Assembly: GCA_027493675.1 (NCBI GenBank)
Contig: JAOSKI010000012.1
Location: forward strand, 1 to 64,000
DNA: 64,000 nucleotides
Source: Microthrixaceae bacterium
Lineage (GTDB): Bacteria; Actinomycetota; Acidimicrobiia; Acidimicrobiales; Microtrichaceae
Direction: 5' to 3'
Shown here piece by piece: positions 11,265 to 35,690 of this stretch. Under the pieces are notes generated by a model, which had not been told where the DNA came from, searched no databases, and saw only the letters and a list, made by a program, of their open reading frames with translations. The position numbers and the translations under genes were made by a program. Every line of letters starts with the position of its first letter. Positions within the stretch are counted from its first letter, which is position 1.

Positions 11265-11339
11265 GCCCCCATCGTCTAGCGGCCTAGGACACCACCCTCT
11301 CAAGGTGGCGGCACGGGTTCGAATCCCGTTGGGGTGCCA
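11265..11339 (+). tRNA. tRNA-Glu(CTC), host copy and left attachment site of the element array
   Basis: Acceptor GCCCCCA (11265-11271), anticodon stem CCACC/GGTGG around CTCTCAA giving anticodon CTC, T-loop GGGTTCGAATCCC, and encoded CCA (11337-11339). The 3' acceptor reads TGGGGT, one G short of the seven pairs expected. The att copies further right have the extra G, so this is probably a base-calling deletion. From the anticodon loop to the 3' end, the sequence is repeated at five downstream sites plus a decayed one, marking it as the integration target. Confidence 0.88.
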
Positions 11340-11345
11340 GAGGAA

Positions 11346-11361
11346 CCCTGCAACTGCAGGG
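11346..11361. terminator. Hairpin just inside element A
   Basis: CCCTGCA-AC-TGCAGGG follows the tRNA-Glu end by 7 bases. The same hairpin recurs just right of the att copies at 21743-21760 and, as a longer form, at 28061-28084. It would terminate tRNA transcription after integration. Confidence 0.5.
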
Positions 11362-11389
11362 GATTCTTCGGTTCCGGGGCCAGGTTGAT

Positions 11390-12549
11390 GCTGACGTGAC
11401 AACCATGCGCCCTGGCGAAACACCCGCGGCGCCCGCGGGGCGGTCGGCCGGATCGGGCCCGCTGTCGTCGGCGTTCGCCGAGGTCCGCAGCCCGTCGACC
11501 AGCTCATCGAGCCGCTCGGCCAAGGCTCGGTCGCGGTCGGCTGCGGCCTTCTGGTAGCGGATCGCCGCCGACGTCGTGGAGTGACCGAGGCGGGCCATGA
11601 CCTCTCGCATCGTCGCCCCCTGCTGGGTCGCGATCGTGCCGGCGGCGTGGCGCAGATCGTGGAAGTGCACCTCGTCCAGCTCCAGCGTCGCCCGCGCTGC
11701 ATGCCACTCGCGCTGGAACCAGCCGTCGCTGATGATGCCGCCGGCCTCGCCGGGGAACAGCGGATCGTCGGGGTCGCCGCTGACGAAGGTGGTGAGGTGG
11801 GCGTCGATGGCGTCGAGCACGAAGCGGGGGGAGCGTGACCGTGCGCTGGCTCGGAATCGGTCTTGGTGGTCTTGCGGCGAGAGCGCTTGTCGATCGACTC
11901 CCGCACGGTGAGGGTGCCGTGCAGGCGGTCGTAGCTGCGCAGTCGGAGGGCCCGCAGCTCGCCGTAGCGAAGGCCGGCGAAGCCGGCGACGAGGATCATC
12001 GGGCGGATCCGGGCGTGTGCGATGTCGGCAAGCGCCAGGACGACCTCGGCGGGCACGAACGGGCGCTCGCCGTGCGGGTCCGATCCGGCGCCCTTGATGC
12101 GGCACGGGTTGCGGGGATCAGGTCGTCCTCGACGGCGGTGGCGAGGATGGCGTGCATGATCCGGTAGGCCCGTGAGGCGGTCGATGGGATGCGTTCGCGC
12201 AGGGGCGGTGCCAACGTCGGACCTCGTCGGGGGTGAGCCGGCCGATCGGTGTGGTGCCGAAGGTGGGGTAGACGTGGCGTTCGAGCGTCTCGGCGTAGTT
12301 GTCCCGGGTCGTGGCGGCGAGCGATCGACCCTCGAGCCACTGCTCGGCGTAGCGGCGGAACGGGATGCGCCCTCCGGTCGGGTCGTGCGCGATGCCGCGG
12401 CTCTGGGCGGCCTCGGTCTGCGACTTGAACGCCTTCGCCCGCTCCAGCGAGTCGAAGCGCCGGGAGCGTTCGGTTTGGCCCGGTACGGGTCGCCACCGCA
12501 CTTCGTAGCGAACACCTCGGGCGGTGTTGAGTCGACGGATCGACGCCAT
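11390..12549 (-). CDS. Tyrosine integrase of element A, frameshifted
   Basis: Site-specific recombinase for insertion into tRNA-Glu. It starts at ATG 12549 (MASIRRLNTARGVRYEVRWR). An arm-binding/SAM-like part runs to about 12150 and includes FDSLERAKAFKSQTEAAQSR and NYAETLERHVYPTFGTTPIG. The catalytic part has the first Arg in FAGLRYGELRALRLRSYDR, the HxxR box in VHFHDLRHAAGTIA, GHSTTSAAIRYQKA with the third His, and the Tyr nucleophile. Frameshifts lie near 12205, 12110 and 11860. The 3' end is uncertain because open frames continue through the att site; 11390 is a conservative end. A near-identical copy is at 21785-22944. Confidence 0.83.
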
Positions 12550-12558
12550 GTCCGGACG

Positions 12559-12778
12559 CTACCGGCTGACGCCGACACCGTCGCCGGCCCGTCGCCGCCC
12601 GACGAATGTGTGCACTGCGTCGAGCGGCACGCGGGCAGCGCGGTTGATGTGCACCACCTCGAGGCTCGCCGGCAGCGATGAGCTCGTACGCCAACGTTCG
12701 CCCGATCGTCAACATCCGCGCCGCTTCCGGGATCGTCAGGAGGAGGGGTTCGGTGTCGAAGAGCGACGGCTGTTCCAT
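12559..12778 (-). CDS. Excisionase/HTH protein of element A, frameshifted
   Basis: A small DNA-binding protein of about 72 residues that starts MEQPSLFDTEPLLLTIPEAA. It contains a MerR/excisionase-type helix-turn-helix (IPEAARMLTIGRTLAYELIA) and an EVVHINRAARVPLDAVHTFV tail characteristic of excisionase-family recognition. A one-base shift near 12668 breaks the frame. It ends 10 bases upstream of the integrase start, so the two form an operon. It likely directs excision or regulates the integrase. The homologue in block C is at 22954-23174. Confidence 0.72.
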
Positions 12779-12877
12779 GCCCTACTAAGCGCGCGTCAAC
12801 GGGTTGTCGGTCGCGACCACAGTGCCGACGAAGCAAGTCGGGGGACATCGCACGGGGGTACTCCTACGCTTGCCCGG

Positions 12878-13485
12878 ATGTGGGAGGAACGGGAAGCAGC
12901 ATGCATCCGTGCCATCGAGCACGGCGTGCTCGACGATCGAGCTCCCAGCCGGCGACAGCGCCACAAGGTCCTCGCCGTCGATCGTGACGGCGACATCGCA
13001 GCCGTGCTGGAGGCAACGCGGGGTAAGCGACGTGGCAGCTCGGTCGTCGCACATGCGTTTCGGAGTGACCATGAAACCTGGGTCTCGATGGGCTCTGCTG
13101 GTACGGGCAGCGACGACCCCGGATGGAGGACCGTTCGATCGTGAGTACCAGGTCGATCACCATCGAGGCGACAGGCTCGATCGGAGGCCGCCAACGTCGC
13201 GCCATCCACGACGCCGTCATCCGAGTTGGGCCCGATATCGAGACGCTCCGCTGGCGAGGAACGGATCGGCCGGTCTCGCCCACCGGCTTCGCAATCGTCG
13301 TGTGGCGGGGAAGGCGGAGTCCGACGGTGGAGGCGATCGATGCCGCCGGGCGCCTGGTCGACCGCCGCAACCTCGAGCGTGCCCGGGCGTCGCGTCGGCG
13401 CATCCCGTGGCGTGTGCGGCTCCGCATGATGCTCACCCGTCGCCGTTCGGACGGCGACTGGTTCAACTACGCGCCCCGTCGCTGA
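12878..13485 (+). CDS. Conserved element protein of unknown function (copy 1), frameshifted
   Basis: Unrecognised protein of about 200 residues, read divergently from the excisionase. It begins MWEEREAACIRAIEHGVLDD (ATG 12878), continues through VLAVDRDGDIAAVLEATRG, and after a shift near 13110 reads SITIEATGSIGGRQRRAIHD, AVIRVGPDIETLRWRGTDRP, TGFAIVVWRGRRSPTVEAID and DGDWFNYAPRR. It is basic and has no membrane segment or signal peptide. A second copy lies in the same place in block C (23273-23883), so it belongs to the int-xis module rather than to the cargo. A role in transfer, regulation or maintenance is only a guess. Confidence 0.5.
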
Positions 13486-13793
13486 GAGGGGGTCGACCTC
13501 GGTCGTGTCGGACGTGGTCGGAATTGCAGGGTCGGAACTGGCCCGGCAGTCGGCGCACGAGCGGCTGCATCGGGAGGTCGTCACGATTCCCGCGTACCCT
13601 CGTCTGCAGGACGGCCGGCGCCAGAGCCGCCGAGAAGAGGGAGCAAGAGGTGATCCGCAGCAAGGTCTCGGAAGTTGGCCGCAATCCGGGCAGGGTGGTG
13701 GACGACCACTGTGACCGGCGCATCCCGGAGTCTGGTCGCCGACCGGGTCGGGGTACCGTCGCTCTTTCCGTGGCCGACTGAGGCGGTTCTTTC
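13486..13793. other. Stretch without a recognised gene
   Basis: About 310 bases between the conserved element protein and the GIY-YIG gene. Sequence identity with block C stops near 13521 (counterpart 23915). A short + ORF (13505-13714) has no recognisable motif. Confidence 0.4.
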
Positions 13794-14733
13794 GTGACCG
13801 CCGGAAAGTCGATCCGCCTGTTTCTCGTCGATGGCACGCCTGGCGGCCTGTTGACGGCGGAGATCATGAACTGGACTGGCCACGTGATCGCTGCCCGCGA
13901 TCCCAACTCGGCACCTTGCTCCGACGCGACGAGGCGACGCGCGCAGGCGTCTACTTGCTGATCGGCGATGACCCCGAGAATCCGACAGAGCAGATGGTCT
14001 ACGTCGGGGAGGGCGACGATGTATCCAAGCGCCTCCGCCACCACGCGCTTCCGGAGTCCTCCGGCGGCAAAGACTTCTGGACGGAAGCGGTGGTGTTGAC
14101 CAGCAAGGACGCCAATCTGACGAAGGCGCATGCGCGCTACCTGGAGGCTCGGTTCATCGGGTCGGCGAGGATGCCGCTCGGGTCCGTCTGGCCAACGGAA
14201 CGACTCCCCCTCCCGTGCAACTACCGGAGGCCGATGTCTCGGACATGGAGTACTTCATCTCACAGGCCAGGATCGTTCTCCCTGTGCTGGGGGTGAACAT
14301 GCTGCGGTCAACTGCGGCCCGAACTGTCGAGTCTGGCGGAGGTTCGTCGGTGGACTCGCCGATCTTCGTGCTTACTCAGCCGCGTGACGGCGTCGAGGGC
14401 TTCGCGCAGGAGGTGGACGGGGAGTTCACGGTCCGCGCGGGCTCGAGAGCCCGATTGACCTGGTCTGGAGTGGAGACGAGCACCACTGCGATTCGTGGGC
14501 AACTCGAGGCAGATGGGACGCTGGCGGTGTCCGCTGATGGCAAGACCCGGGAGTTCTCCCGGGACCACGTGTTCACGAGCCCGAGTGCAGCAGCGGCCGT
14601 GCTGCTGGGGCGGTCGTCGAACGGCCGGCTCGAGTGGAGGGTCCAGGGCTCCGGTGCGTCCTACGGTGACTGGCAGGCCAACCAGATCGCCACGCTGGCA
14701 CCGTCCCTCGAGGAAGAGCCCGACGAACCATGA
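13794..14733 (+). CDS. GIY-YIG nuclease-like protein with C-terminal DUF4357-type domain, frameshifted
   Basis: Probable nucleic-acid endonuclease. GTG 13794 begins VTAGKSIRLFLVDGTPGGLL. The GIY-YIG core is seen as AGVYLLIGDD (G-V-Y) and MVYVGEGDDVSKRL (V-Y-V-G-E), with ARYLEARFIGSA supplying the family's Glu-containing helix. The C-terminal third (ARLTWSGVETSTTAIRGQLE, FTSPSAAAAVLLGRSSNGRL) resembles DUF4357, which is commonly appended to this nuclease type. Frameshifts are near 13905 and 14205. It sits head-on to the AbiE pair in the same block, so a defence role is plausible but is inference. Confidence 0.72.
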
Positions 14734-14842
14734 TCCCAGCCGAGGTGTAGTCAGCTCGTCGGATGGGCAAGCCGGCCTGCACGGCCAGCCGATTCGGAGC
14801 GGGGTAGGTCGGACCCTGTGTCGGGCAGGAGTGGGCCCATCG

Positions 14843-15723
14843 TCAGGCGCCAGTGAACGGGGCCATTCCGGTGCTGTCGACCTCGTAGCGGTGGCCGGGA
14901 TTGCAGGCAGCCCACTGCTGCTCGTCGGCGTCGAGGTGTCGGAGGAAGTCGAATCGTCCGCGGACCGTGGTGAGCCAGCCTGGGATGTCGACCGGTTGGG
15001 TGAGGTAGCCGATGTCCTCGGGGACGAACTCGCTGGGGGCGCGCTCGCGCAGCACCTCGTCGGCCACGAGGGGGCGGTCGCCACGACCGTCGTCCACCAC
15101 GTCGAAGTACACCTTGATCACCCACAGGCGCCGGACCAGCGCCTCGCCGAACGGGTGCCGAGCAAACCACGCCAGGTCGTACAGGTCGCGGGCGAGGGAG
15201 ACGCGTCGGAACCGGGCGAGCTTCTCGGCGATGGCCTCCTCGAGCGCGATCACCGGGGTGATGGGGGCCGCGACGTCGTAGCGGTCATGGACCGGCTGCG
15301 GAACGAGTGGCAGATGTTCCGGAGGCAGGAGGAGGCGCGCTGCGAAACCTTGATGCGTGCGGCCACGTCGGGCTGGCCGAACGGCGTGTCCACCTCGAGA
15401 TCGGCCCGGCGCCCGTCTCCGCCAAGGTCCGGGATGCGGAACCGGAAGCCGTCGACCTCGACGTCGGCCAAGGCCGACATCAGCGCGACCGTGACGTCGT
15501 CGTCGGGTGAGTGGAAGTCCAGGTCGGTGGAGAACCGCCCCGCGCCACCGACCCGGAACTTGCGCAGAGAGGTCCCGCCCTTGAACACGAGTCCGGCGGC
15601 GAATACGCCCTGGTCGTGCAGGTGCGCCAGCGCGTGGTCCTGGGCGATGTCGAGCAGAGCCGGTCCGCGGCCACCGTGGCGACCCTGGTAGTGCCGGGCG
15701 AGATGTCCTTCGGTGATCCTCAC
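14843..15723 (-). CDS. AbiEii-type nucleotidyltransferase toxin (element A), frameshifted
   Basis: Toxin half of a type IV toxin-antitoxin / abortive-infection pair; characterised AbiEii proteins are GTP-binding nucleotidyltransferases. GTG 15723 overlaps the antitoxin stop (GTGA). The NTase core is intact: GLVFKGGTSLRKFRVGGAGR then FSTDLDFHSPDDD, giving the GG(T)S and DxD motifs near residues 45-65. The C-terminal part, after a shift near 15270, includes ALEEAIAEKLARFRRVSLAR, DLYDLAWFARHPF and a tail ending MAPFTGA. The usual AbiEii length is about 290 residues, which matches. Confidence 0.8.
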
Positions 15724-16532
15724 GGCTGGACGGACTCGAAGCTGGGCGCGAGGACCGAGTCGATGACCTCGAACCGCTTGTCGAAGCGCCCGTCGAGGTG
15801 GCGGGGGCCGAGGTAGACGGGGCCGTGCCCGGGCGGAGTGCCCGCCTTCAGCTTCTCGCCGGCGTTCTGGTTGTGGCCCGTGGCCAGGAGGTAGCCGGCG
15901 CGGAGCCACGCTGCCCGTGGAGCTCCCGACAGGCAACGGTCAACGCGATCAGGATCGGCTGTGGCGACGGCACGGGGGAGCCACTCGGCGACGTTGGGCC
16001 AGTCCTCAAACGCGTCAGGCCGGCACGCCATGCCGGCGAGCAGCGTCTCAACCCGCCAGGTGGGTAGCCCGTCGATCCGCGTCAGAGCGTCCGGGCCGAC
16101 CGCCAGTGTCACCAGCCGCCATCCGTCCAGCGCCTTCGGTCGACGCCGGCCCGGCGGAAGGGAGAGCACCTCGTGAGCCGGAACCCGACCGGCCAGGCCC
16201 AGCGCGACCGCTGCGGACTCCATGGCCAGTGCACCTGGGAAGTCCGGGTCCACGGCGAGCGTGGCGCGCAGTTCGATGTGTCGGTCGCCAGCGCCCAAAC
16301 GTCCCGCTCGCGCTGCTGGCACGAACTCCCAGGCTCCCCGGGTGCGGAGGGGGAGCAGCCAGCCGAGTCGGCGCAGGTCGTATGCGAGTTGCGTCCCGTC
16401 TTTCGTGACGCCGTTCGTCCCGGCTAGTTCGCCGAGGCCCGATGCGGTGACGACCCGCGGCTGGTCCAGCTCAAGTGCCTGGATGATCGGTGCCAACCTC
16501 GCAGGAATCGGTCGAGCCTCGTCCACTGACAT
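15720..16532 (-). CDS. AbiEi-family antitoxin (element A)
   Basis: Antitoxin and transcriptional repressor of the AbiE pair, 270 residues and intact. It starts MSVDEARPIPARLAPIIQAL. An N-terminal winged-helix region (VVTASGLGELAGTNGVTKDG, LAYDLRRLGWLLPL) is followed by the AbiEi C-terminal domain (HIELRATLAVDPDFPGALAM, VAEWLPRAVATADPDRVDRC, LRAGYLLATGHN). It overlaps the toxin gene by four bases. A 10-bp inverted repeat directly upstream (16540-16568) is a good candidate for its own operator, in line with known AbiEi autorepression. Confidence 0.82.
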   Translation of the reverse strand: MSVDEARPIPARLAPIIQALELDQPRVVTASGLGELAGTNGVTKDGTQLAYDLRRLGWLLPLRTRGAWEFVPAARAGRLGAGDRHIELRATLAVDPDFPGALAMESAAVALGLAGRVPAHEVLSLPPGRRRPKALDGWRLVTLAVGPDALTRIDGLPTWRVETLLAGMACRPDAFEDWPNVAEWLPRAVATADPDRVDRCLSGAPRAAWLRAGYLLATGHNQNAGEKLKAGTPPGHGPVYLGPRHLDGRFDKRFEVIDSVLAPSFESVQP

Positions 16533-16539
16533 CGATACT

Positions 16540-16568
16540 CCTTTCTGGCGTCATAGTAGCCAGAAAGG
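16540..16568 (-). promoter_or_regulatory. Operator/promoter of the element A AbiE operon
   Basis: Perfect 10-bp inverted repeat CCTTTCTGGC (16540-16549) / GCCAGAAAGG (16559-16568). The spacer read on the minus strand contains TACTAT, a good -10 box, about 20 bases from the AbiEi start. Repressor binding there would block transcription. Confidence 0.6.
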
Positions 16569-16610
16569 CGTGTAAATGACAGTGCGTGTCGAGTGGGGCA
16601 GTTCCACAGC

Positions 16611-16734
16611 GCCCCGCGAAATCCCGCGGCCGCCCCGATTCGCAGGGCTTCGCCGCTGCTCGGTCGATCGCGAGAACCCCGGAATTGCAGTCGCCTGCGT
16701 CCGTCACCATTCATAGAAGTCGGCCCAGGGGTCG
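16611..16734. repeat. Conserved right-end motif, copy R1
   Basis: About 124 bases running up to the att core. Landmarks are CGCGGCCGCCCCGATTCG, GGTCGATCGCGAGAACCCCG, GGAATTGCAGTCG and AGAAGTCGGCCCAGGGGTCG. Closely related copies precede the att cores at 28012, 29341 and (diverged) 35651. This is the likely attP arm or right terminus of the family. Confidence 0.75.
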
Positions 16735-16777
16735 CTCTCAAGGTGGCGGCACGGGTTCCAATCCCGTTGGGGGCGCC
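16735..16777 (+). repeat. att site 2 (tRNA-Glu 3' half)
   Basis: Repeats the tRNA-Glu segment from CTCTCAAGGTGG to GGGGGCGCC with two substitutions relative to the other copies. It is the A/B junction. Confidence 0.85.
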
Positions 16778-17358
16778 AGCGACGAAGCCCCTGGTGAGCA
16801 GCCGAGAACGCTGCGACGCCAGCGGTTTCGGCGCTTCCCCGGGCCGATCGGCCGTGTTGGGCTGTGTGACCTGGTCCCGGCCTCTACCGCCGTGTACCAC
16901 CGCGATCTGTGCACAGTTGTGCCCAGATTGTGCTCACCGGATCGGTGGCACCGGAGCGCGTCGTCGGCCTCGCGTTTCGAGTTGGTGGCCACGACCTCCG
17001 GTCCGCATCCCGGCCGACCGTCGACTCCCGCGCGACCTCCCGTGTGGTGTCGCGTGTTCCGCTGGACCTACCGCGCGACATCCCGTTTGGGCCTGGGCGT
17101 GCTGGTCACGGTTACGGTCGTGCGGATCCTCTCCCGGCCGCTGGCGGAGTGTTCCGAGTGGGCCAAGCGGTCCGAGCCAGAGGTGCTGTGGAGGGTGATC
17201 CCGCGAGTTTGTGCCCATTTGTGGCCGGATTGTGCCCACCTGTGGCCGTCGGCTCTGCGTCGCCGCCGGTCGCGGATAGGTCTACGAAGTCCACCAAGGC
17301 GAAGCCCACCACCTCGGCCGGCGAGCGCCGGGTAGCCTTGAGAGGCGAGGTTCTGATC
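16778..17358. other. Left end of element B with putative integrase arm sites
   Basis: No gene is recognised in about 580 bases. An imperfect hairpin (GAAGCCCCTGG ...) follows the att core and resembles the left end of block F (31012 onward). TTGTGCCCA occurs at 16917, 17209 and 17230, and TTGTGCTCA at 16928. The 16917/16928 doublet is repeated exactly at the right end of the same block (21562/21573), as expected of arm-type integrase sites. Confidence 0.5.
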
Positions 17359-17529
17359 ATGAGTGACGCCGCACAACACCGTGAGCCCACCGGTCTGGCC
17401 GGGTTGCCCCGCGACCTGACCGACGAGGAGCTCGAGCAGGCGCCGGTCTTGGAGTCGGTCGATGACCTACTGATCGAGGACCTCATGGACGAGGAGGCTT
17501 ACGCCTTCTTCGCAGCGCTCGACTCGTGA
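17359..17529 (+). CDS. VapB-like antitoxin (element B)
   Basis: Small acidic protein of 56 residues (MSDAAQHREPTGLAGLPRDL through FAALDS), starting at ATG 17359 with AGGCGAGG upstream. No DNA-binding fold is evident by eye. The call rests on size, acidity and a four-base GTGA overlap with a PIN-domain gene, the standard vapBC arrangement. Confidence 0.62.
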   Translation: MSDAAQHREPTGLAGLPRDLTDEELEQAPVLESVDDLLIEDLMDEEAYAFFAALDS

Positions 17530-17936
17530 CCCGGGTCGTCGTCGACACCGGGGTGTTCAGCGCGTCACTCTCACGCCGGCGACGCCCACGTTTCGACAGA
17601 CACGTCCGGGAGATGACCGGCCGAAGCATCTTCCTTGCGGCGCAGACCGTGGCTGAGTGGCGCTACGGCGCCCTCGTCGCTGGCTGGGGAGACCCTCGGC
17701 GGCTGCGACTCGAAACCGCTCTCGGATCCACGACGGTTGTTCCCGTCACCGACACGCTGATCACCTAGGTCGCCGAGCTCCACCATGAGTGCAGGCGCGC
17801 AGGTCACCCACTGGCCGCCGACTCTCACGCGGCGGACCTATGGATCGCCGCCAGCGCTTGCCACATCGGCGTGCCGCTGCTGACCGCCGACTCGATCTTC
17901 GACGACGCACCAGGCGTGGTCGTGGTTGAGCCATAG
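17526..17936 (+). pseudogene. VapC-type PIN-domain ribonuclease with an in-frame amber codon (element B)
   Basis: PIN-domain toxin of 136 codons. VTRVVVDTGVFSASL holds the first catalytic Asp, FLAAQTVAEWRYGAL the conserved Glu, and the C-terminal part has DLWIAASACHIGVPLLTAD with the remaining Asp residues. The frame is unbroken from GTG 17526 to TAG 17934, except for TAG at codon 81 (17766-17768), where relatives have a coding residue. This is either a point mutation inactivating the toxin or a single-base error. It overlaps its antitoxin by four bases. Confidence 0.72.
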
Positions 17937-17937
17937 T

Positions 17938-18243
17938 CGCGCGCCGCTTCGAGTTGTCGGTCGGTGAGCCCACTCACGACGCGGAGCGCGTGGTCGTCTT
18001 GTGCGTGTCGAACGCGACGAGGTGGCTCCAGGCGGTGCGCAGGCCCCGCGGGAGGACGAGGTCAGCCCTCGCCTCGCAGAGCAGCACGCCATCGACGACC
18101 TGCTCGATATCAGCCGGCGCCCCCTCGCGGAGAACGATCTCGTCGGCACGAAGTTGGTCCTCTCGCGCCGCTCAGTTGTTGTCACGAGCGATTCAGGTGG
18201 GCGGCTCGACGGCCCGCCGGCGTACTCGACCGGGTCGCGGTGT
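17938..18243 (-). pseudogene. Remnant of an XRE/nucleotidyltransferase toxin-antitoxin pair (element B)
   Basis: Read right to left, about 18160-17974 encodes ADEIVLREGAPADIEQVVDG, VLLCEARADLVLPRGLRTAW and a stop. This parallels the C-terminus of the XRE protein at 28636-29166. The stop overlaps a GTG that begins VSGLTDRQLEAARD, which parallels the start (VNRLTALQRDAAR) of the nucleotidyltransferase at 28639. That second frame is cut off after about 13 codons by the end of VapC. Both genes are truncated. Confidence 0.6.
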
Positions 18244-18276
18244 GAGGGTCCGGTTCCTTCGTCGCCACTGAGAGCC

Positions 18277-18776: not shown

Positions 18777-18792
18777 GTTCGGCACGCATGTC

Positions 18793-18838: not shown

Positions 18839-18866
18839 TCGACTGCCTCGCGGCGATGCTGACGAG

Positions 18867-24027: not shown

Positions 24028-24033
24028 GTGCGC

Positions 24034-25116: not shown

Positions 25117-25748
<632 letters not shown>

Positions 25749-26770: not shown

Positions 26771-26788
26771 GCGCAGCGCCAGGAGCCG

Positions 26789-28053: not shown

Positions 28054-28060
28054 TCCAGAG

Positions 28061-28240: not shown

Positions 28241-28324
28241 CCCTTCATCGTCGCCCCTAGCGAGGGTTCCGGAGGAGGTCCGTTGACCACTCGGCGAACC
28301 ACTGGCGCACGTCGGATTGTTCTC

Positions 28325-28639: not shown

Positions 28640-29166
28640 GATGCTGTCGGGAGTGCGGCTGGGTCGTGTGCGGAGCTCACCAGGGGCGCCCATGCCGACC
28701 GCAACGAGCGGGGCAGTACGAGGTCGGGCCAGGCCTCGCAGAGTGGCACCTCGTCGACGATCTCTTCGATGTCGGCCGGGGTGCCTTCCCGGAGGACGAT
28801 CTCGTAGGCACGGAGGCGGTCGTCGCGTCGGGAGAGGTCGAACGTGCGTGGAGGGCCACTCCACCACAGGTGAGGTGCCGCGTCGATCGAGCGGAGCGCC
28901 TCGCCCGGCGACAGCCGCCAGAGGCGCGACGGAACGGCGTACGGGCGCCGGTCAGCAGTCCAGGACCACACCACGGGAGGCTCGATGGCGACCTTGGCGC
29001 CGGCCACCCCGAGGAGCGCGACCGCGCTGTGGAAGAGCGGCTCGCGTCGACCGTGCTCGTAGGCGGCGATGTTGGGGCGCGCCACCCCCGAGCGCTGGGC
29101 GAGCACGGTCTGGGTCATGCCGGCCGCCCGGCGGGTGGCGCGCAGCACGCTGGCGAAGTCAGGCAT
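28636..29166 (-). CDS. XRE-family antitoxin/regulator (element D)
   Basis: 176 residues. The N-terminal helix-turn-helix is MPDFASVLRATRRAAGMTQT, VLAQRSGVARPNIAAYEHGR (residues 1-40). It is followed by a domain with LLGVAGAKVAIEPPVVWSWT, RSIDAAPHLWWSGPPRTFDL and YEIVLREGTPADIEEIVDEV. It overlaps a nucleotidyltransferase gene by four bases, the standard layout of XRE/NTase toxin-antitoxin pairs. A remnant of the same pair is found in block B (17938-18243). An inverted repeat sits 4 bases upstream of its start codon. Confidence 0.75.
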   Translation of the reverse strand: MPDFASVLRATRRAAGMTQTVLAQRSGVARPNIAAYEHGRREPLFHSAVALLGVAGAKVAIEPPVVWSWTADRRPYAVPSRLWRLSPGEALRSIDAAPHLWWSGPPRTFDLSRRDDRLRAYEIVLREGTPADIEEIVDEVPLCEAWPDLVLPRSLRSAWAPLVSSAHDPAALPTAS

Positions 29167-29169
29167 GTA

Positions 29170-29187
29170 TGTATCGTACTCGATACA
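29170..29187 (-). promoter_or_regulatory. Operator of the element D XRE gene
   Basis: TGTATCG (29170-29176) and CGATACA (29181-29187) form a 7-bp inverted repeat with a 4-base spacer, immediately upstream of the start codon at 29166. Its position suits autorepression. Confidence 0.5.
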
Positions 29188-29215
29188 CCCTGAGATTGAT
29201 CCGCCAGACTAGAGA

Positions 29216-29340
29216 GCCCCGCGAAAGATCCGCGGCCGCTGCGAATCGGGCTCGTACGCATGCATCCAGCCGATCGCGAGATCCCCGGAATTGCAGTCGT
29301 CTGCGTTCGTCACCATCCGCAGAAGTCGGCCCAGGGGTCG
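29216..29340. repeat. Conserved right-end motif, copy R3
   Basis: Shares CGCGGCCGCTGCGAATCGG, GAGATCCCCGGAATTGCAG, TCGTCTGCGTTCGTCACCAT and GAAGTCGGCCCAGGGGTCG with R1 and R2. It is more diverged in its first third. Confidence 0.72.
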
Positions 29341-29382
29341 CTCTCAAGGTGGCGGCACGGGTTCGAATCCCGTTGGGGGTGC
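29341..29382 (+). repeat. att site 5 (tRNA-Glu 3' half)
   Basis: Exact copy of the core from CTCTCAAGGTGG to TTGGGGGTGC. It is the D/E junction. Confidence 0.88.
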
Positions 29383-29385
29383 TCA

Positions 29386-29415
29386 GCGAAAGCCCCGGAA
29401 TTCCGGGGCTTTCGT
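29386..29415. terminator. Hairpin after att site 5
   Basis: GAAAGCCCCGGAA (29388-29400) pairs perfectly with TTCCGGGGCTTTC (29401-29413). It is unrelated in sequence to the hairpins after att 1, 3 and 4. Confidence 0.6.
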
Positions 29416-29469
29416 CGCTCTCTGGCTCCTTGGCTTGGTAGCGGTGACCTCTGGCGCCCGCGTCGCCAG

Positions 29470-29936
29470 TCAGTCGACGGCCTCCTCCGCGATCTTCGGA
29501 TCCTTCAACGCCCCGTCCAACGGACCGCCGATCACATCGCCAAAATCCTGGAACTCGGAGAAGCCGTAGGGCTCCATCGCGTCGCGGCTCCCCTCCGTCA
29601 GGAGCTCCGAGAGGTGCCACTTGCCCTTGTAGACCGTGTGGTAGCCGAGATCGCGCAGCATGTGGCCGATGGTGGGCAAGGCATCCGGATCGGCCGTCAT
29701 GTCGTCGATCCAGGCGAAGTTGGTGTTGTCGAACATCCGGGTGTGCGGCGTGTGCTGCCCGGTGTACATCACCGAGGGCGATGGCGTGCACACGGTGGTG
29801 GTGCAGTGGTGGTGGTTGAACGAGACTCCCCGGGCACGAATGCGGTCCCTCCCGGGCAGGGCGAGATCCTCCGGCATGGCCCGATGCGCATACTCCTGGT
29901 CGGTGACGATCATCAGGATGTTGGGTTGCCTGGTCA
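29470..29936 (-). pseudogene. Sulfatase, N-terminal fragment (element E)
   Basis: Starts ATG 29936 (MTRQPNILMIVTDQEYAHRA), the classic metal-binding N-terminus of type I sulfatases. The active-site region reads TTTVCTPSPSVMYTGQHTPH; the formylglycine Cys is present, but the CxPSR motif has Pro in place of Arg. Further matches are LPTIGHMLRDLGYHTVYKGK and WHLSELLTEGSRDAMEPYGF. The frame stops at TGA 29470 (after EEAVD, where relatives continue with Trp) and the similarity ends at the hairpin beside att 5. Only the first third of a sulfatase is present, so it is non-functional. Confidence 0.72.
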
Positions 29937-30175
29937 TGATGCCGTTCTCTGCTGTGGATGAGTACCCCGGGACCTGTTGACCTACAAGCACGCGTGAATC
30001 GCCTGGCAGCCAGCTCCACCTGATGCGGCCAGTGGAGAGCTGTACCTACAGGGACTTCGGAGCTGAATCGACGTCTGGCATCGATCAGGGTCCGAACTCC
30101 CGACCGGTCGTCGCAAGGAGTGCAGGGGTCGCCAACTACCGGCTCCGCGTCACTGTTCGACCTGCGCCGGTCCGC

Positions 30176-30571
30176 TTACGGATGGATCGTGGCGGCGCGG
30201 AGGGTTGGCGCGTTCGAAAGGTTGATGTCTGTGGTGACCAGCGTTGCGTCCAGGTGCTCGGCCAACACGATCTACAGGGCATCGGCAATGGTCAGGTTCG
30301 CTCGCTTCGACCACGCATCTGCCAGCAACGGGCGAACCTGCACCCGTCGCAGCGGTGCAGTGGACAGCGACGTCATCGCTTGGGCGGCCGGTGCACTCAG
30401 GACCCCACCGCGGAGTTCGGCCCGACGCAACGCCCCGGCGACCTCGGCGAAGAAGTGCTCGGGCACCCACCAGTGGGCGCCGGTCGGGAGCATTGGTTGA
30501 AGCCTGCGGCCGGTGGCTGTGTCGGGCAGGAGATCGACGCTCGCCGGCGCGTCCAGGACGAGGTCGGTCAC
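30176..30571 (-). pseudogene. VapC-type PIN-domain toxin with in-frame amber codon (element E)
   Basis: GTG 30571 overlaps the antitoxin stop. It reads VTDLVLDAPASVDLLPDTAT (first Asp), WWVPEHFFAEVAGALRRAEL (Glu) and RPLLADAWSKRANLTIADAL, then TAG at 30274-30272. After that the same frame continues IVLAEHLDATLVTTDINLSN (the last acidic cluster) to TAA 30178-30176. Relatives have Tyr at the amber position (DALYV). Without read-through the toxin lacks its C-terminal catalytic part. Confidence 0.7.
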
Positions 30572-30741
30572 CCTGCTTCGTCGCGGGCTTCGGCGACGAG
30601 TTCGGCGCCGGTCACGTCGAGCTCAACGGGTTCGGCGTCTCGCCGCAGCGAGTGCAGCCACTCGTCCGCATCTCCCTGGACGTCGTCCGGGATGGGAACG
30701 ACTGCGGGATCGAGTTCGAAGTCGACGACCGGACGAGGCAT
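30568..30741 (-). CDS. VapB-like antitoxin (element E)
   Basis: 57 residues from ATG 30741: MPRPVVDFELDPAVVPIPDD through LVAEARDEAG. It is strongly acidic and has a GTGA overlap with the PIN gene. TACCAT on the minus strand a few bases upstream could be a -10 box, giving a nearly leaderless message. Confidence 0.62.
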   Translation of the reverse strand: MPRPVVDFELDPAVVPIPDDVQGDADEWLHSLRRDAEPVELDVTGAELVAEARDEAG

Positions 30742-30962
30742 GGGTTCATGGTATCTGGGCGATGCGACACCAGCCCTGCGCCAATGCCTACTCCTGCCCT
30801 CGACGCCTCGGCACGGACCGGTCGTCGTCGGGCGACTTGGTAATCCGTTTGGTAATCCACCGGGCGTGACGGGGCCGATCTCGGCGGACGGCCCGGACGG
30901 GAAACCCTGACAGGACGGGCCTTCCGGCACCCGGCCGCACCGGCCGGACCGACCTGCTCGAA

Positions 30963-31004
30963 CTCGCAAGGTGGCGGCACGGGTTCGAATCCCTTTGGGG
31001 GTGC
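30963..31004 (+). repeat. att site 6 (tRNA-Glu 3' half, slightly diverged)
   Basis: CTCGCAAGGTGGCGGCACGG continuing to CTTTGGGGGTGC, with two changes from the consensus core. It is the E/F junction. No copy of the conserved right-end motif precedes it. The following hairpin (GAAGCCCCTGG with CCAGGGGTTTC) resembles that after att 2. Confidence 0.82.
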
Positions 31005-31269
31005 ACAGGGCGAAGCCCCTGGTGAACAGCAAAGGCCGCTGCAATGCCAGGGGTTTCGTTGTTCCAGGAGCCTCGGGAGGCTTGCCATCGGGTCCCAGCC
31101 CGTGCTGTCCCGAACCCCCGGATCCCAGCTCGATTGTGCCCGCCCTGTACGGCCGGACAGCCCGCGTCGAGCGGGCCCGAGTGCTCCACTGCGCCCGTGT
31201 CGTCAACTAGATGAATCACACTTGGCGTGAACGCCCGATCTCCGACGGCGGAATCGACGGGGATATCGA

Positions 31270-31430
31270 GATCGTTGAGCCGGCCACGGCGGTACGACCT
31301 CGAGCCGGTCACCTCGAATCGAACGGTGGTGACGCTCACCTACGACTGGTCTGGGGTCGGTGCCGAGGTGCGCGCCTACATCGAGTTCCCTCCATTCGCG
31401 CCCGGCCATCTCGCCAACTCGTTGCAGTAG
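31270..31430 (+). pseudogene. SRPBCC-family protein, C-terminal fragment
   Basis: Encodes RRYDLEPVTSNRTVVTLTYD and WSGVGAEVRAYIEFPPFAPG, HLANSLQ then TAG. This matches the last beta-strand and the long C-terminal helix of SRPBCC/polyketide-cyclase-like proteins. After the TAG the frame would continue IARLVAR, which still fits the family. The N-terminal part is missing. Confidence 0.55.
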
Positions 31431-31556
31431 ATCGCCCGTCTGGTCGCACGACGAGCGTCGGACGGCTGGGCATAACGCGGATTGGCGGTGTGCTCGGCCT
31501 GCTGAGGCGGCGGTGACAGGGCGAGCTGTCCCGCTGCGGTCGTAGCTCCCTCTCGC

Positions 31557-31931
31557 TCAGAGGTACGGCCGAGTGATCAGTTCAAGGTAGTGCCCTGACG
31601 GGTCGAGCAGGTAGACGCCGCGCCCGTCGTGGTCGTGGTTGATCTCGCCCGGTCGCGTGCGCTGAGGGTCGGCCCAGTGAGGCCGATAGCCTGCCGTGAT
31701 CTTGGCATAGGCACGGTCGAAGTGCTCGTCGTCGAGAAGGTAGGCGTAGTGCTGCGGTGGGAACCCGATCGGTGGGGCCGCGAACTGCAGCATCATCCCG
31801 TCTTCGAGGCCGAGGTTGGCGAACGGCCCCCATGACGGCAACTCGGTGGCGTCGAGGAGGTCGAGGTAGAAGGCCCCCATCTCCGACAGGTCGGTCGAGG
31901 CGATGATCGTGTGGTTGAAGCGCGCGGTCAT
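31557..31931 (-). CDS. VOC-family protein (glyoxalase/dioxygenase fold), element F
   Basis: 124 residues, intact. MTARFNHTIIASTDLSEMGA, FYLDLLDATELPSWGPFANL and HDGRGVYLLDPSGHYLELIT show the paired beta-alpha-beta-beta-beta modules, with His near the start and the Glu of LELIT as likely metal ligands. Specific function is unknown. Confidence 0.8.
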   Translation of the reverse strand: MTARFNHTIIASTDLSEMGAFYLDLLDATELPSWGPFANLGLEDGMMLQFAAPPIGFPPQHYAYLLDDEHFDRAYAKITAGYRPHWADPQRTRPGEINHDHDGRGVYLLDPSGHYLELITRPYL

Positions 31932-32662
31932 GCTGCTCCTTTGGTCTGCGCTGGTGAAGGGGTGAGGTCACGCAGACACTCGGAGGGGAGCGGATCAGGA
32001 GCCGACCAGGTCGCCGTCCCGGGAACGGCCGCGTGGGCCTGACTGGTCATCATCGCGGCCAGCCTACCGATCACCAGGTCCCCCTCACGGGTGCTGCTGC
32101 TCCGAACTTCTCCCGAAGGGCAGATCCAGCGCGCGCATTGACAGGTTTGCCTCCCGGTCAACCTGTTCGGCCTCCTACCGCGCCTCCCGCGCGGCCTGGC
32201 GACCGCAATGCGGGCCCACTCCAGGATGCGCCTGGACCCCCGCCTGAGGTCGAAAGGCACTCGTTCGCTCACGTTATCCGCGATGCGGAAGATTTGTGCG
32301 CGCCGGATCTGCTGTTCGGCTCCAAGTGACCTGGCGGACTACGCGGTTCTTCAGGTGGGGCGCAGGTCCTCCCTTGGCGCTGCTCGTGAGCGAAGCGAAC
32401 ACGCAGCAGCGGCACGGTCTCGCGGGCCCTACGAAGAGGGGATCGTCCATCCGGGCGGTCCCCCTGGCGCGTCTTGCGACAGTGAGGGCATGGCCGCAGC
32501 GAGGACCGCCTTGTGCCTCGGGGTTGGGACGACGGACTCTCTACCGAAAGCGGTAGCGTTTTCGTCCAGCGATCGAAGCGATGATCGAAGGATCCAAGTT
32601 CGCAACGGCCTGGCCGGGACCGGCTCAACTTCAAGCCTGGTGGTCACTGCACAGGCCGCTGG
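31932..32662. other. Stretch with only a broken small gene
   Basis: About 730 bases. On the minus strand from 32272 a damaged reading VSERVPFDLRRGSRRILEWA continues after a shift and a TAG as EAEQVDREANLSMRALDLPF, stopping near 32085. It looks like a small decayed element gene of about 60 residues, function unknown. Nothing else is recognised. Confidence 0.4.
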
Positions 32663-33290
32663 TCAGGTGCTTTCTGGCCCTGAGCTTCGCGTCGCAGAGC
32701 ACACAGATCCTCTGCCGCGTATGAGCACGCTCGGTTGGTCGAGGTCCGCGGCGACCGGAGGCGTCTCATGCGCGTCCGCGAATCGTGCCGTCACGTGGGG
32801 ATGGCGCCGGCCGAGCATGGCGTGGACCTCGGCGCCGGTTCTCGATGGGTTCTTCGCGACCTCGGCTTGGGTGCGCAGGCCTTCCCTGTATGCATGCTCG
32901 CTGAACCGGAGCGCCATGAACGTAGTCTGGGTTCACCGCACTCAACTCATGCGGCCGGAGGTCTTCCAAGGCGAAATCGGCCACGTCGGTGGTGATGAGG
33001 AACCGCGCACCGGCCAACACGGCGTCCGGCGAGTACCTGTCGATCCTCGGCGCTGGCCGTCAGCAGGCCCTCGGTCGTGGGAGCGGACTCGGACAGCTCC
33101 ATACGGAGGATGTCCCGTCGAATGACCGACGTCCGCGACGAAACACCCCGGGCGTGGCGGTCGGCTTCAGCCTCGAGGTGCGCGGACCAAGTCAGCAGCA
33201 GGCCATCGAAGCGTCCCCCAGCGATGACCAGCGTGGCGTGACGGGAGATGCCAGCACGTTGGCATCGAGGAAGGCGACGGTGTCAGCCAC
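32663..33290 (-). CDS. PIN-domain toxin-like protein (element F), frameshifted
   Basis: GTG 33290 overlaps the HTH gene by 8 bases. The N-terminus VADTVAFLDANVLASPVTPR carries the first catalytic Asp. The core reads GGRFDGLLLTWSAHLEAEAD and, after shifts near 33030 and 32925, AGARFLITTDVADFALEDLR (Asp cluster) and MALRFSEHAYREGLRTQAEV. The C-terminal extension (AEVHAMLGRRHPHVTARFAD) is characteristic of a PIN subfamily paired with excisionase-like HTH antitoxins. Predicted RNase. Confidence 0.68.
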
Positions 33291-33498
33291 CGAAGAGATC
33301 GGCCTCGATGTCCTCCGCACTGGCTTCGGCCATCCGACGCATGAGCTCGTGGCTGTACCGCTCGAACTCGACGAGCGGGATCCGGTGGTGAGTGCCGACC
33401 TTCGTTGCCTTCAGGTCGCCGTTTGCGATCCGGCGTAGGACCGTCGACCGTGACATGCCGAGCCGCTTGGCCACCTCTGCTGGCGTGAGCAGCTCCAC
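33283..33498 (-). CDS. Excisionase-type HTH antitoxin (element F)
   Basis: 71 residues, intact: MELLTPAEVAKRLGMSRSTV, LRRIANGDLKATKVGTHHRI, PLVEFERYSHELMRRM and an acidic tail EASAEDIEADLFGG. The N-terminal winged helix binds DNA; the acidic tail probably contacts the PIN toxin encoded by the overlapping downstream gene. Confidence 0.78.
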   Translation of the reverse strand: MELLTPAEVAKRLGMSRSTVLRRIANGDLKATKVGTHHRIPLVEFERYSHELMRRMAEASAEDIEADLFGG

Positions 33499-33520
33499 CC
33501 GGGATGAGAACTCGACGACC

Positions 33521-33616
33521 TCACCTCTGTCTCTCGCCGCGCTTCAGGAAGGCGCGGATGGTCTCCCAATCGCCATCCGACAGGTGGGCCGGGTTGATCG
33601 TCAGCGGGCTGCTCAT
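33521..33616 (-). CDS. Small ORF upstream of the PIN operon
   Basis: 31 codons, MSSPLTINPAHLSDGDWETI through FLKRGERQR. It lies 22 bases upstream of the antitoxin in the same direction. It is too short for a family call and may be a remnant. Confidence 0.3.
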   Translation of the reverse strand: MSSPLTINPAHLSDGDWETIRAFLKRGERQR

Positions 33617-33671
33617 GGAGCCATCATACCCCGTCGTGGTCACTTGTTGATGGCTAAATGACCATCATGGG

Positions 33672-34110
33672 GTCACCAGTCCTCGGTTGCGGCGGTGACG
33701 GTGGCGCTCAGGTCACCTCAGACGCCGACGTAGCGGGAGAGTGTGAAGGTGGCGTTGGCGTGTCCGAGCAGGCTGGCGGTCACCCCAGGGTCGAAGCCGA
33801 CGTCGAAGAGGATCCAGCACGCCGCCATGTGGCGGAGATCGTGGGGATGCCACATCGCGGCGGTCGGGCGCTTCATCGGCCAGTCGGCCTTCCGAGCCCA
33901 GATCCGTTGGAAGCAACGTCGGTTGCCGAAGCCATCACCGCTGCCGGAGGGCGATCAGCTCACCTCAACGCAGCCCGCAACGGTGCTGCAGCCGCATCGA
34001 CGAGCCGACGTCTTGTACCGTCGACGCTCGGAACAACCACCCGGTAGCGTGGCTCGGCCGCGGTGTGTGCGCAGCTGCGGGTGCCGAACTCCGAACAACG
34101 CGAGGGGCTT
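33672..34110 (-). pseudogene. Remnant of a second-type tyrosine integrase (element F)
   Basis: Minus-strand pieces match the integrase of block B: FGTRSCAHTAAEPRYRVVVP (N-terminus, near 34090), QRIWARKADWPMKRPTAAMW, HPHDLRHMAACWILFDVGFD and LLGHANATFTLSRYVGV, then a TGA where block B continues. The middle third is missing. The HxxR and Tyr motifs survive, but the gene is dead. Confidence 0.68.
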
Positions 34111-34227
34111 GGGGTAGCGGCGGCTGCCGACACCCGATTGTCCGGTCGTCCCAAGCGTGCCAGACTGGATCGTCCCGGCGTGGCTCCCACGGTGCCGCGC
34201 AAGGCCGTTGCTACGGAGGGCGACACG

Positions 34228-35632
34228 TTGGCGGATGGCCAGGTCCAGGGGGGGAGCGGAGCGCAGCCGTCACGCCGACCCGGCCTTCGCGACCGCCTCG
34301 AGCTGTCACGCGGTGGCGCCGACCGCCTGGCATCGATGGAGGGGTTGCGGGGCCTCGCTGTGCTGCTCGTGTTCATGGTGCACTACACCGACCGCGCCCT
34401 GCCCTGGATCGAGGGTACATGGGTGGAGGGGTTCGCCTCTCAGGTGGGCGATGCCGGCAACTCGGGGGTGGACCTCTTCTTCGTGCTCTCGGGGTTCCTG
34501 ATCTACGGCAACCTCATGCGCCGCGAGCAGGCCTACCGGCCCTTCGTGCGCCGGCGGCTGCGGCGGATCTATCCGACGTTCCTGGTGGTCCTCGCCGCCT
34601 ACGTGGTGGTGTCCTTCGCGATCCCCTCGGAGTCCAAGCTGCCCGGCAGCCTGGCGGAGATCCCGCCGTACCTCCTCTTCAACGCCCTGCTGCTGCCGGG
34701 CATCATCCCGGTCCCGGCGTTCATCACGGTGGCGTGGTCGCTCAGCTACGAGGTGTTCTTCTACCTGACCGTGCCGATCCTGATCACTCGGCTGAACCTG
34801 CGAGAGCGCACCGAGCAATGGCGTTGGCGCTTCTTCGTCCGCCTGGCCCTCGGTCTGGTCCTGCTCGGCGGGGTCATCTCGGGGGCCCACCCCCGGATGT
34901 CGATGTTCGTCGGCGGCATGTTGTTGTGGGAGTGGTTGACCTACCGCTGGCCCCGACAGGCCGACGACCCCGAAGCCGTCAGGAAGGTCGATCGGTGGTC
35001 CACGGTGGCGCTGGTGGTCGGCGTGCTGTCGTTGTTCGTGCTGCCGGGCGACTTCGCGTTCAACCTACCCCGCGTCGTCGTGCTGCTCGTGGCCTGGCCA
35101 GTGCTGTGTGCGGGGTGCTTCGCTGTGGACCGACGCTGTCGGCGGTGGTTCTCCTGGACGCCGCTGCGGCTCCTCGGCAACGTCAGCTACTCGTTCTACC
35201 TGGTCCACTCACTCGTGCTGCAGGCCTTCGCCTTCGGTCTGAAGCAGGTGTGGCCACCCCCCGTCGGGCGGCGCGGGTTGGTTGTGGTTCGTCGCGCTGG
35301 TGCCCGCCTTCGCCGCCTCGGTGGCGGCATCGATCATGCTGTTCCTGGCCGTCGAGAAGCCGTTGTCGCTCTCGAAGACGGAGAGACGCCTCGTGAAGGG
35401 GCCCGGCCGTCCTGAGAGGCACCGATCCGCTGCATGGCGCGGGGCGGCGCCGGAGCCGACGACGACGCGGAAGCCATCGATCAAGGCGCTCCGGCGCATC
35501 GCGAGCGGGTCGGCCGCCAAGCGCGCACCGCGAAAGACCCGCTGCCGCACCGATGGGCGGCGTGTCCGCCGCTGTAGGGTCAATCGCGAGAACCCAGCAA
35601 GTGCAGTCGTCTGCGTTCGTCATCGTCGGTAG
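34228..35632 (+). CDS. Acyltransferase 3 family membrane protein, one frameshift
   Basis: Multi-pass O-acyltransferase (OafA/YrhL type) that transfers acyl groups to surface carbohydrates. TTG 34228 is chosen because GGAGGG lies 8 bases upstream. The family N-terminus is RLASMEGLRGLAVLLVFMVH with the conserved His. It continues NSGVDLFFVLSGFLIYGNLM, RRRLRRIYPTFLVVLAAYVV, TVAWSLSYEVFFYLTVPILI and LRLLGNVSYSFYLVHSLVLQ. After a shift near 35265 comes VPAFAASVAASIMLFLAVEK. The C-terminal tail runs into the R4 terminal motif, so the last ~40 residues are probably not native. Confidence 0.75.
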
Positions 35633-35650
35633 AAGTCGGCTCAAGGGTTG
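35524..35650. repeat. Conserved right-end motif, copy R4 (diverged)
   Basis: Retains GCGAAAGACCCGC, AATCGCGAGAACCCAGC, GTGCAGTCGTCTGCGTTCGT and GTAGAAGTCGGCTCAAGGG in the order seen in R1-R3, with many substitutions. It marks the right end of the array. Confidence 0.65.
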
Positions 35651-35690
35651 CCTTCTGGGCGGCGGCACGGTTTCGACACGTTGGTGATGC
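35651..35690 (+). repeat. att site 7, decayed
   Basis: CCTTCTGGGCGGCGGCACGG continuing TTTCGACACGTTGGTGATGC aligns with the tRNA-Glu core with substitutions and deletions. A hairpin (AAGGCCCC/GGGGCCTT, 35697-35720) follows, as at the other att sites. Confidence 0.55.

What the first reader, a model, noticed from the sequence alone, without database searches (positions are those of the whole stretch)
11265..35690. Six-block tandem array of integrative elements stacked in one tRNA-Glu gene
The ~42-bp tRNA-Glu 3' half recurs in direct orientation at 16735, 21692, 28012, 29341, 30963 and, decayed, 35651. Two unrelated integrase types are present, each associated with its own left-end sequence (A/C versus B/F). 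Nearly all cargo is toxin-antitoxin or defence-like. This is an accretion island showing intact, internally deleted and decayed stages side by side.
Basis: partly seen in the sequence, partly recalled or inferred. Interest (0 to 1): 0.8.

Follow-up and report, generated by a model that had tools for sequence, protein, structure and literature searches.

The report
Stacked mobile islands in tRNA-Glu gene
In the draft genome of an uncultured actinobacterium, small mobile DNA elements of three different kinds, several of them carrying toxin-antitoxin or defence genes, have piled up one behind the other in a single transfer-RNA gene; piling up of this kind is known from other bacteria, but this pile was the longest found among the relatives searched.

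Summary
The 3' part of tRNA-Glu(CTC), from the anticodon loop on, recurs in direct orientation at 16735, 21692, 28012, 29341 and 30963; a degraded copy at 35651 is recognised by the element end before it. It is a tandem accretion of tyrosine-integrase islands in a MAG related to Microthrixaceae. Corrections: (1) Three element lineages, not two: type 1 (A, C, D, right end of F), type 2 (B, left end and integrase remnant of F), type 3 (E, whose relative in G028 has its own integrase). D and E lack an integrase; F is a type 2/type 1 fusion, so at least seven insertions are recorded. (2) Frameshifts do not show decay: chromosomal genes outside the island are broken too. (3) Cargo is defence/TA-like in A, B and D; none was recognised in C or most of F. 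Relatives supply tests: a filled/empty pair (G029/G025), an insertion behind tRNA-Glu (G021 against G026/G011), and two species sharing 11.5 kb at 99.4% from tRNA-Glu on with 78% flanks. The kind is known (ICE/CIME accretion; Dehalococcoides ssrA islands). Six copies is the most among 298 order genomes searched, this one included.

The parts
11265..11338 (+). tRNA-Glu(CTC), the integration target; its 3' part from 11297 is the array's first att copy
   Evidence: ARAGORN; Rfam; pattern
11339..16734 (.). Block A, type 1: integrase (about 11425-12550, -), HTH_17 excisionase-like ORF (about 12560-12778, -), DUF4357/PDC-S14 gene (about 13900-14730, +), AbiEii (about 14846-15726, -), AbiEi (15723-16550, -), type 1 right end 16615-16734
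   Evidence: Pfam (the window's own HTH_17 piece is below cut-off); PADLOC; end profile
16735..16778 (+). att copy 2 (1 mismatch)
16779..21691 (.). Block B, type 2: PIN-like ORF below cut-off (17529-17768, +), DUF6933/PDC-S63 (18246-18773, +), AbiEi (18837-about 19640, +), AbiEii (19645-20416, +), integrase (20593-about 21476, -) beside the right end
   Evidence: Pfam; PADLOC; relative in G034 54-65% identical piece by piece
16917..16938 (+). 22-bp arm-site-like repeat, left copy
   Evidence: exact second copy at 21562; 95th percentile of the longest match in 100 shuffles 10 bp
21562..21583 (+). 22-bp arm-site-like repeat, right copy
21692..21735 (+). att copy 3
21736..28011 (.). Block C, type 1: integrase (about 21807-22944, -), HTH_17-like start (about 22960-23173, -), HTH_3/HTH_31 gene (23986-24657, +), PG-binding + YkuD L,D-transpeptidase (25767-about 26770, +), Rce1/CAAX-like pieces (26903-27714, -), type 1 right end 27888-28011
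   Evidence: Pfam; end profile
28012..28055 (+). att copy 4
28056..29340 (.). Block D, type 1 deletion derivative: left end, integrase 3' remnant (about 28162-28268), AbiEii-like ORF and HTH_31 gene (about 28340-29208, -), right end 29217-29340; no intact integrase
   Evidence: similar cargo lies in a type 1 element with an open integrase frame in G006
29341..29384 (+). att copy 5
29385..30962 (.). Block E, type 3 without integrase: sulfatase fragment (29473-29949, -), short unassigned ORFs (about 30224-30742, similar DNA in G032), right end with TTTGGTAATCC-like boxes at 30836 and 30848
   Evidence: Pfam; ends match G028 (including the core; without it)
30963..31006 (+). att copy 6 (2 mismatches)
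31007..35650 (.). Block F, fusion: type 2 left end, glyoxalase-like ORF below cut-off (31560-31967, -), HTH_17 ORF (33286-33543, -), type 2 integrase remnant (about 33675-34030, -), then acyltransferase (34048-35412, +) and type 1 right end (35528-35649)
35651..35692 (+). degraded att copy 7
   Evidence: type 1 right end directly before it; the core itself is beyond 8 mismatches
35693..43500 (.). stretch between the last att copy and the first downstream similarity to G001; possibly part of the same variable region
   Evidence: window-G001 similarity resumes at 43587

Best explanation
This is a tandem accretion array. Three lineages of small integrative elements, each with its own tyrosine integrase and ends but the same core (tRNA-Glu(CTC) from the anticodon loop to the 3' end), have inserted one after another into the same tRNA gene. 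Each insertion rebuilt the tRNA 3' end and pushed the old 3' part away, leaving a direct repeat. Deletion inside and between elements then produced integrase-less modules (D, E) and a fused block (F). Shown: repeats, matched ends, integrases, a filled/empty pair, and interspecies sharing whose left border falls in tRNA-Glu. Inferred: that the integrases cross at the anticodon loop, that the short repeats are arm sites, and that D and E could be moved by an integrase in trans or together with a neighbour.
For: Five further core copies in one orientation behind tRNA-Glu, none in shuffles. Type 1 right ends in A, C, D, F, G001, G002, G006 and left ends in A, C, D, G001, G002, G006. Type 2: B and F share left end and integrase; in G034 (one contig) tRNA-Glu and a second core lie 103 kb apart, F's left end is 81% similar over 107 bp there (core included), and a 54-65% identical integrase sits beside the far core, as in B. 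Type 3: E's ends without the core score 29.0 and 93.0 against G028 (shuffle maxima 13.0 and 26.5), and G028 has an integrase there. Right ends of different types compare at shuffle level (E-C 10.0, B-C 14.5, B-E 12.5 against maxima of 22.5, 18.5, 19.5). Arm-like direct repeats at both ends: 22 bp in B, 19 bp in G001, 11 bp in G028. HTH_17 gene beside the type 1 integrase, with an excisionase PHROG match in G006. G025 lacks one att-flanked unit of G029 (98.9% over 274 bp before, 92.0% over 2035 bp after). G021 has about 11.2 kb behind tRNA-Glu that G026 and G011 lack. G001 and G002 are 99.4% identical over 11,544 bp from the tRNA-Glu start, 78.2% in the flank, and 50-base bins jump from 74% to 100% there. 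Window against G001: 91.3-91.5% in the integrase module, 75.0% in the flank. 7 of 32 family relatives have two core copies on one contig.
Against: No excised circle, reads or same-species strains were available. The relatives named are MAGs, so contig chimaeras at the tRNA cannot be excluded. The right border of the G001/G002 stretch is not seen because the G002 contig ends. G021 shows no second core at its far junction. E's left end also resembles F's left end above shuffles (19.0 against 14.0), so left ends separate the types less well than right ends. The B repeat was not found in G034 by pattern (one search printed no hit). The loose type 1 box pattern also hits elsewhere and misses the right ends of G001 and G002.
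Confidence: 0.9

Rival explanations
1. One larger element entered once, and its blocks were later separated by duplication of the att core, for example through unequal recombination, rather than by separate insertions.
For: The copies share one core and one orientation; A and C share 2.1 kb of left module, as a duplication would give.
Against: Three end types with different integrases. A and C carry different cargo between matching ends and differ by 7% in the shared module. Relatives hold elements of single types at this tRNA: type 1 in G006, type 3 in G028, type 2 in G034.
Confidence: 0.05
2. Assembly artefact: reads from several strains or species with different elements at the same tRNA gene were strung together at the repeat.
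For: The genome has many indels, and four of the six core copies are identical.
Against: The stretches between copies are unique apart from the shared ends and modules. G001 and G002 contigs likewise carry two stacked type 1 right ends, one of them decayed. G034, one contig, has a filled site.
Confidence: 0.05
3. The array is dead: a graveyard of old insertions without present movement.
For: Broken frames in integrases A and B and one near the start of C, a fused block F, a degraded last att.
Against: Chromosomal genes are broken in the same way, so frames are not informative. Integrase C reads open through its catalytic domain. G001 and G002 share a type 1 island at 99.4%, which implies recent movement of this family in the genus.
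Confidence: 0.3

Closest known systems
Dehalococcoides ssrA genomic islands (PMC3146451; abstract and 12 passages seen)
   Same: Several small islands in tandem behind one RNA gene, each marked by a direct repeat of the gene's 3' end; conserved integration module plus variable cargo; 15 of 31 islands without integration module, which the authors say might be cis-mobilizable.
   Different: Serine recombinase, tmRNA target, reductive dehalogenase cargo; here three tyrosine-integrase lineages, tRNA-Glu, TA/defence and other cargo.
AICE/DAICE accretion at tRNA-Arg in Streptomyces (PMC9513070; 8 passages seen)
   Same: Actinobacterial accretion of one to three elements of three families with different integrases between identical direct repeats, plus a remnant.
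   Different: Those carry traB; no transfer gene was recognised here. Fewer elements per site.
ICESt1/CIME accretion in Streptococcus thermophilus (Pavlovic et al. 2004; seen only as a reference entry, content recalled)
   Same: Deletion derivatives that keep attL/attR and stack with intact elements.
   Different: Different host, target gene and integrase.
Islander tandem islands (PMC4383910; 4 passages seen)
   Same: Islands in tRNA genes delimited by 3' fragments; anticodon-centred crossover is one of its two large classes (2083 against 1836).
   Different: Its table gives 3919 islands, 125 tandems of two or more and 4 of three or more, each member with its own integrase; the window has six intervals, three with an integrase gene and remnants in D and F.

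Membership tests
Tandem accretion of tDNA genomic islands | target tRNA gene whole at one end, direct repeats of its 3' part at each boundary | tested here: met
   the seventh copy is degraded
Tandem accretion of tDNA genomic islands | site-specific recombinase gene in at least one member | tested here: met
   PF00589 in A, B, C; remnant in F
Tandem accretion of tDNA genomic islands | empty or differently filled site in relatives with the same flank | tested here: met
   in G005 the upstream genes lie inverted on the other side of the tRNA
Tandem accretion of tDNA genomic islands | excised circle or restored attB shown | not testable with these tools
   no reads or strains
Integrative and conjugative element / AICE | transfer genes (relaxase/T4SS or TraB/FtsK) inside an element | tested here: not met
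   none in Pfam for the 40 open pieces scanned (39 from blocks A-F); shorter or unscanned ORFs were not tested
CIME (cis-mobilizable element) | no recombinase gene, both att copies and both ends kept | tested here: met
   D: both type 1 ends and an integrase remnant; E: both type 3 ends, but the left box seen in G028 at 868 was not found in E
CIME (cis-mobilizable element) | mobilised with or by a neighbour | not testable with these tools
   needs an excision assay
Prophage / phage satellite | phage structural or packaging genes, or close relatives in phage records | tested here: not met
   none in Pfam for the 40 pieces; PHROGs run on 8 proteins, 4 of them from the window, gave integration, DNA-binding and unknown families only; integrase C has no IMG/VR relative and only matches under 60% identity, none covering 80%, in 764 phage records

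The most novel reading that the evidence does not exclude
The array works as a tRNA-anchored cassette store for toxin-antitoxin and defence genes. Because three integrase lineages use one core, each att copy is a substrate for several enzymes, so integrase-less modules as small as 1.3 kb (D, E, the G029 block) are gained, lost and reordered precisely, alone or as composites, within a bacterial family.
Probability: 0.25. Interest if true: 0.65.

Novelty: new member of a known kind. Interest (0 to 1): 0.42.

Why it matters
It gives an actinobacterial family outside the model genera a well-marked integration hot spot where elements with integrases, integrase-less modules, a filled/empty pair and recent exchange between species can be compared. 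It is a natural place to test whether integrase-less TA modules are moved by neighbouring integrases, and how three enzymes come to share one tRNA target.

Tried and rejected
Rfam scan of 8-40 kb found the two tRNAs only. A relative of integrase C in IMG/VR: none. Plasmids and phages: only distant integrase-family hits, none covering 80% of the query. Composition as a border mark: blocks A-F 66.1-69.4% GC against 67.3-68.6% in the flanks, uninformative. AbiEii density: 2 of the 5 loci found in the genome lie in the island (A, B); D was not detected by that search, so this is suggestive only. The type 1 integrase frame running through attL into the tRNA (seen in A and G006) was considered as an integration-dependent switch and dropped, because in G001 and G002 it stops before the core. 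The synthetase gene in the window as sole copy: not so; one search finds an open 577-aa family member on C42 and another, itself in two pieces, on C1. Copies of the pattern far apart in G236 and others (list cut) were not followed. A search for 'Microthrixaceae', 'genomic island' and 'integrase' together gave no paper (this library only).
Full report
What was checked. ARAGORN places tRNA-Gln at 11150-11222 and tRNA-Glu(CTC) at 11265-11338. The core that begins at the anticodon loop recurs at 16735, 21692, 28012, 29341 and 30963, in the tRNA's direction, with 0-2 mismatches; at up to 3 mismatches the genome holds these six copies and no other. No further window copy appears at up to 8 mismatches, and 20 shuffles gave none.

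Host and quality. Integrase C's close relatives in the named collection are on contigs titled Microthrixaceae MAGs, a family of Acidimicrobiia, Actinomycetota; their lengths match G001 (99608), G002 (15094) and G006 (26746). The window's genome is placed in the same family as these. It is 3.44 Mb in 45 contigs and scores 55.8% complete, whereas the two same-genus genomes of 3.5 and 3.3 Mb score 96 and 94%. Upstream chromosomal genes, named from Pfam on the G017 and G001 orthologues, are an isopropylmalate dehydrogenase-type gene, an aminotransferase class IV, a LeuA-type synthase and a Glu/Gln-tRNA synthetase. In the window the first falls into four pieces in changing frames over 1 kb against the 331-aa G016 protein, and the synthetase into two frames plus an in-frame stop. 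A further synthetase of the family is open on another contig, and a third is itself in two pieces. I read this as assembly indels; real loss of these genes is not excluded. Either way, broken frames in the island are not evidence of decay particular to it. Missing segments (D, E, F) are.

Three lineages. Type 1: A and C share a left module (92.8% over 2146 bp) with the integrase and an HTH_17 excisionase-like gene, and A, C, D and F share a right end. The same right ends occur in G001, G002 and G006. D keeps both ends and about 107 bp similar to the integrase 3' part (score 43.5 against a shuffle maximum of 21); its HTH/AbiEii cargo is 73.7% identical over 849 bp to cargo inside the G006 element that has an open integrase frame. 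Type 2: B has its integrase beside the right end and an exact 22-bp repeat near both ends. F has the type 2 left end and an integrase remnant (78% identical to B over 93 aa). In G034, a one-contig genome of another family of the order, tRNA-Glu and a second core are 103 kb apart, and an integrase 54-65% identical to B's pieces lies beside the far core. The left-end resemblance there is 81% over 107 bp with the core included; B's right end was not matched and B's 22-bp repeat was not found by pattern. Type 3: E matches the ends of a 10-kb element in G028 (90.7% over 86 bp on the left, 86% over 165 bp on the right, core included; both also above shuffles without the core). That element has its own integrase and a 2271-aa RHS/PA14 protein. 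Representatives of the three integrases share 25-27% identity. F thus joins a type 2 left part to a type 1 right part, so at least seven insertions are recorded. A caution: right ends of different types compare at shuffle level, but E's left end also resembles F's left end (19.0 against a maximum of 14.0).

Arm-site-like repeats. Left-right comparison gave 22 bp in B, 19 bp in G001 and 11 bp in G028 against 95% shuffle limits of 9-10 bp. In C it gave 11 and 10 bp (limit 10), in A only an inverted 9-mer, and in D, E, F and G006 nothing. A loose pattern, made by eye from type 1 ends, finds boxes at +116 to +120 after att at the left ends of A, C, D, G001, G002, G006 and at -121 or -122 at the right ends of A, C, D, F and G006. 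It did not return the right-end box of G001 and G002 and also hits other places, so it is descriptive only.

Relatives. At up to 3 mismatches 7 of 32 family relatives have two core copies on one contig, 15 of 32 one, 10 of 32 none. The upstream flank is similar in many of the 18 sites fetched; in G005 it lies inverted on the other side. G029 and G025 agree at 98.9% over 274 bp up to and just past the core and at 92.0% over 2035 bp after it, and G025 lacks the 1.38-kb unit between G029's two cores. That unit shows two short ORFs in the coding scan and a distant type 1 right end (E 1.4e-7), so a module without a recognised integrase has been gained or lost at the core. G011 and G026 run through the site at 81%, while G021 carries about 11.2 kb there, without a recognisable second core. 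G001 and G002 are 99.4% identical over 11,544 bp in a comparison started at tRNA-Glu and 78.2% before it; without a chosen start, 50-base bins read 56-78% up to tRNA-Glu, apart from 94% in tRNA-Gln and two poorly aligned first bins, and 100% from its start on. The window and G001 are 75.0% identical in the flank and 91.3-91.5% in the integrase module. G001 and G002 also hold a decayed internal type 1 right end besides the intact one. In G032 an E-like module precedes a D-like one, the reverse of the window.

Borders. Window and G001 are similar in pieces from 12 to the tRNAs and into the integrase on the left, and again at 43587-44360 and 48379-49272 on the right. The stretch 35.7-43.5 kb is therefore variable too, though no core copies mark it. 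The glycosidase gene at 40935-43496 has 63-71% relatives elsewhere in five family genomes (G003, G005, G006, G010, G013), so part of this stretch may be old chromosome.

Cargo. A: DUF4357 gene (PDC-S14), AbiEii, AbiEi. B: PIN-like ORF below cut-off, DUF6933 (PDC-S63), AbiEi, AbiEii. C: HTH, peptidoglycan-binding L,D-transpeptidase, CAAX-type protease pieces. D: HTH and an AbiEii-like ORF that is below cut-off in the window (E 0.003) but clear in G006 and G032. E: sulfatase fragment and unassigned short ORFs. F: glyoxalase-like ORF below cut-off, HTH_17, acyltransferase. PADLOC saw 10 ORFs only. The type 1 island of G001 carries a cytosine methylase/Vsr open frame.

How common. In 298 genomes drawn from the order, the window's own included, at up to 2 mismatches, the window's genome has the most copies (6). 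The next have 4 (G097, G236, G314), for G097 and G236 on more than one contig; G098 has three in 5.6 kb (its list of places is cut). Islander counts 4 tandems of three or more among 3919 islands, under a rule that each has its own integrase. Dehalococcoides has multi-island arrays at ssrA, Streptomyces one to three elements at tRNA-Arg.

Verdict. A real, well-marked and long mixed accretion array; its mechanism is of a known kind. Activity and movement of D and E are untested.

Noticed in passing
G001:C5 (L019) and G002:C43 (L020): Two species of the genus share at least 11.5 kb at 99.4% from tRNA-Glu on, while the flank is 78%; the shared stretch includes a decayed internal type 1 end and runs beyond the second att copy, as if a composite moved at once.
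   Followed up: partly
window 11265-11338: The tRNA-Glu acceptor stem reads four G where the relatives and the other intact att copies read five, and the bases after it differ; a sequencing indel or a real change.
   Followed up: no
window 3644-10430: Biosynthetic genes and a tRNA synthetase gene are split between frames, pointing to assembly indels in this MAG.
   Followed up: partly
L025 (G028:C131) 587-7399, minus strand: A 2271-aa open frame with RHS-repeat and PA14 matches is the main cargo of the type 3 element.
   Followed up: no
G098:C74 25017, 27858, 30609: Three core copies about 2.8 kb apart in another family of the order, possibly another small-module array.
   Followed up: no
G000:C1 357697-360924 (in L052): Further integrase pieces of the same family with tRNA-Gly(CCC) close by (L052 9655-9726), perhaps a second hot spot of this genome.
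   Followed up: partly
L021 (G006:C30) 5331-6599; window block A: The type 1 integrase frame runs through attL and stops inside the tRNA gene, so its C-terminus would change on excision; not so in G001/G002.
   Followed up: partly
G001, L019 10626-13310: An 895-aa open frame in the type 1 island without any Pfam or PHROG match.
   Followed up: no
G034:C1 3657337-3760554: A 103-kb interval between tRNA-Glu and a second core with a type 2 integrase beside the far core; its content was not examined and it may be a large relative of block B.
   Followed up: no
G001 reversed locus 13540-13568, G002 13097-13125: A partial core (its later two thirds) about 140 bp behind the second att copy (E 5e-6), perhaps another degraded insertion scar.
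   Followed up: no
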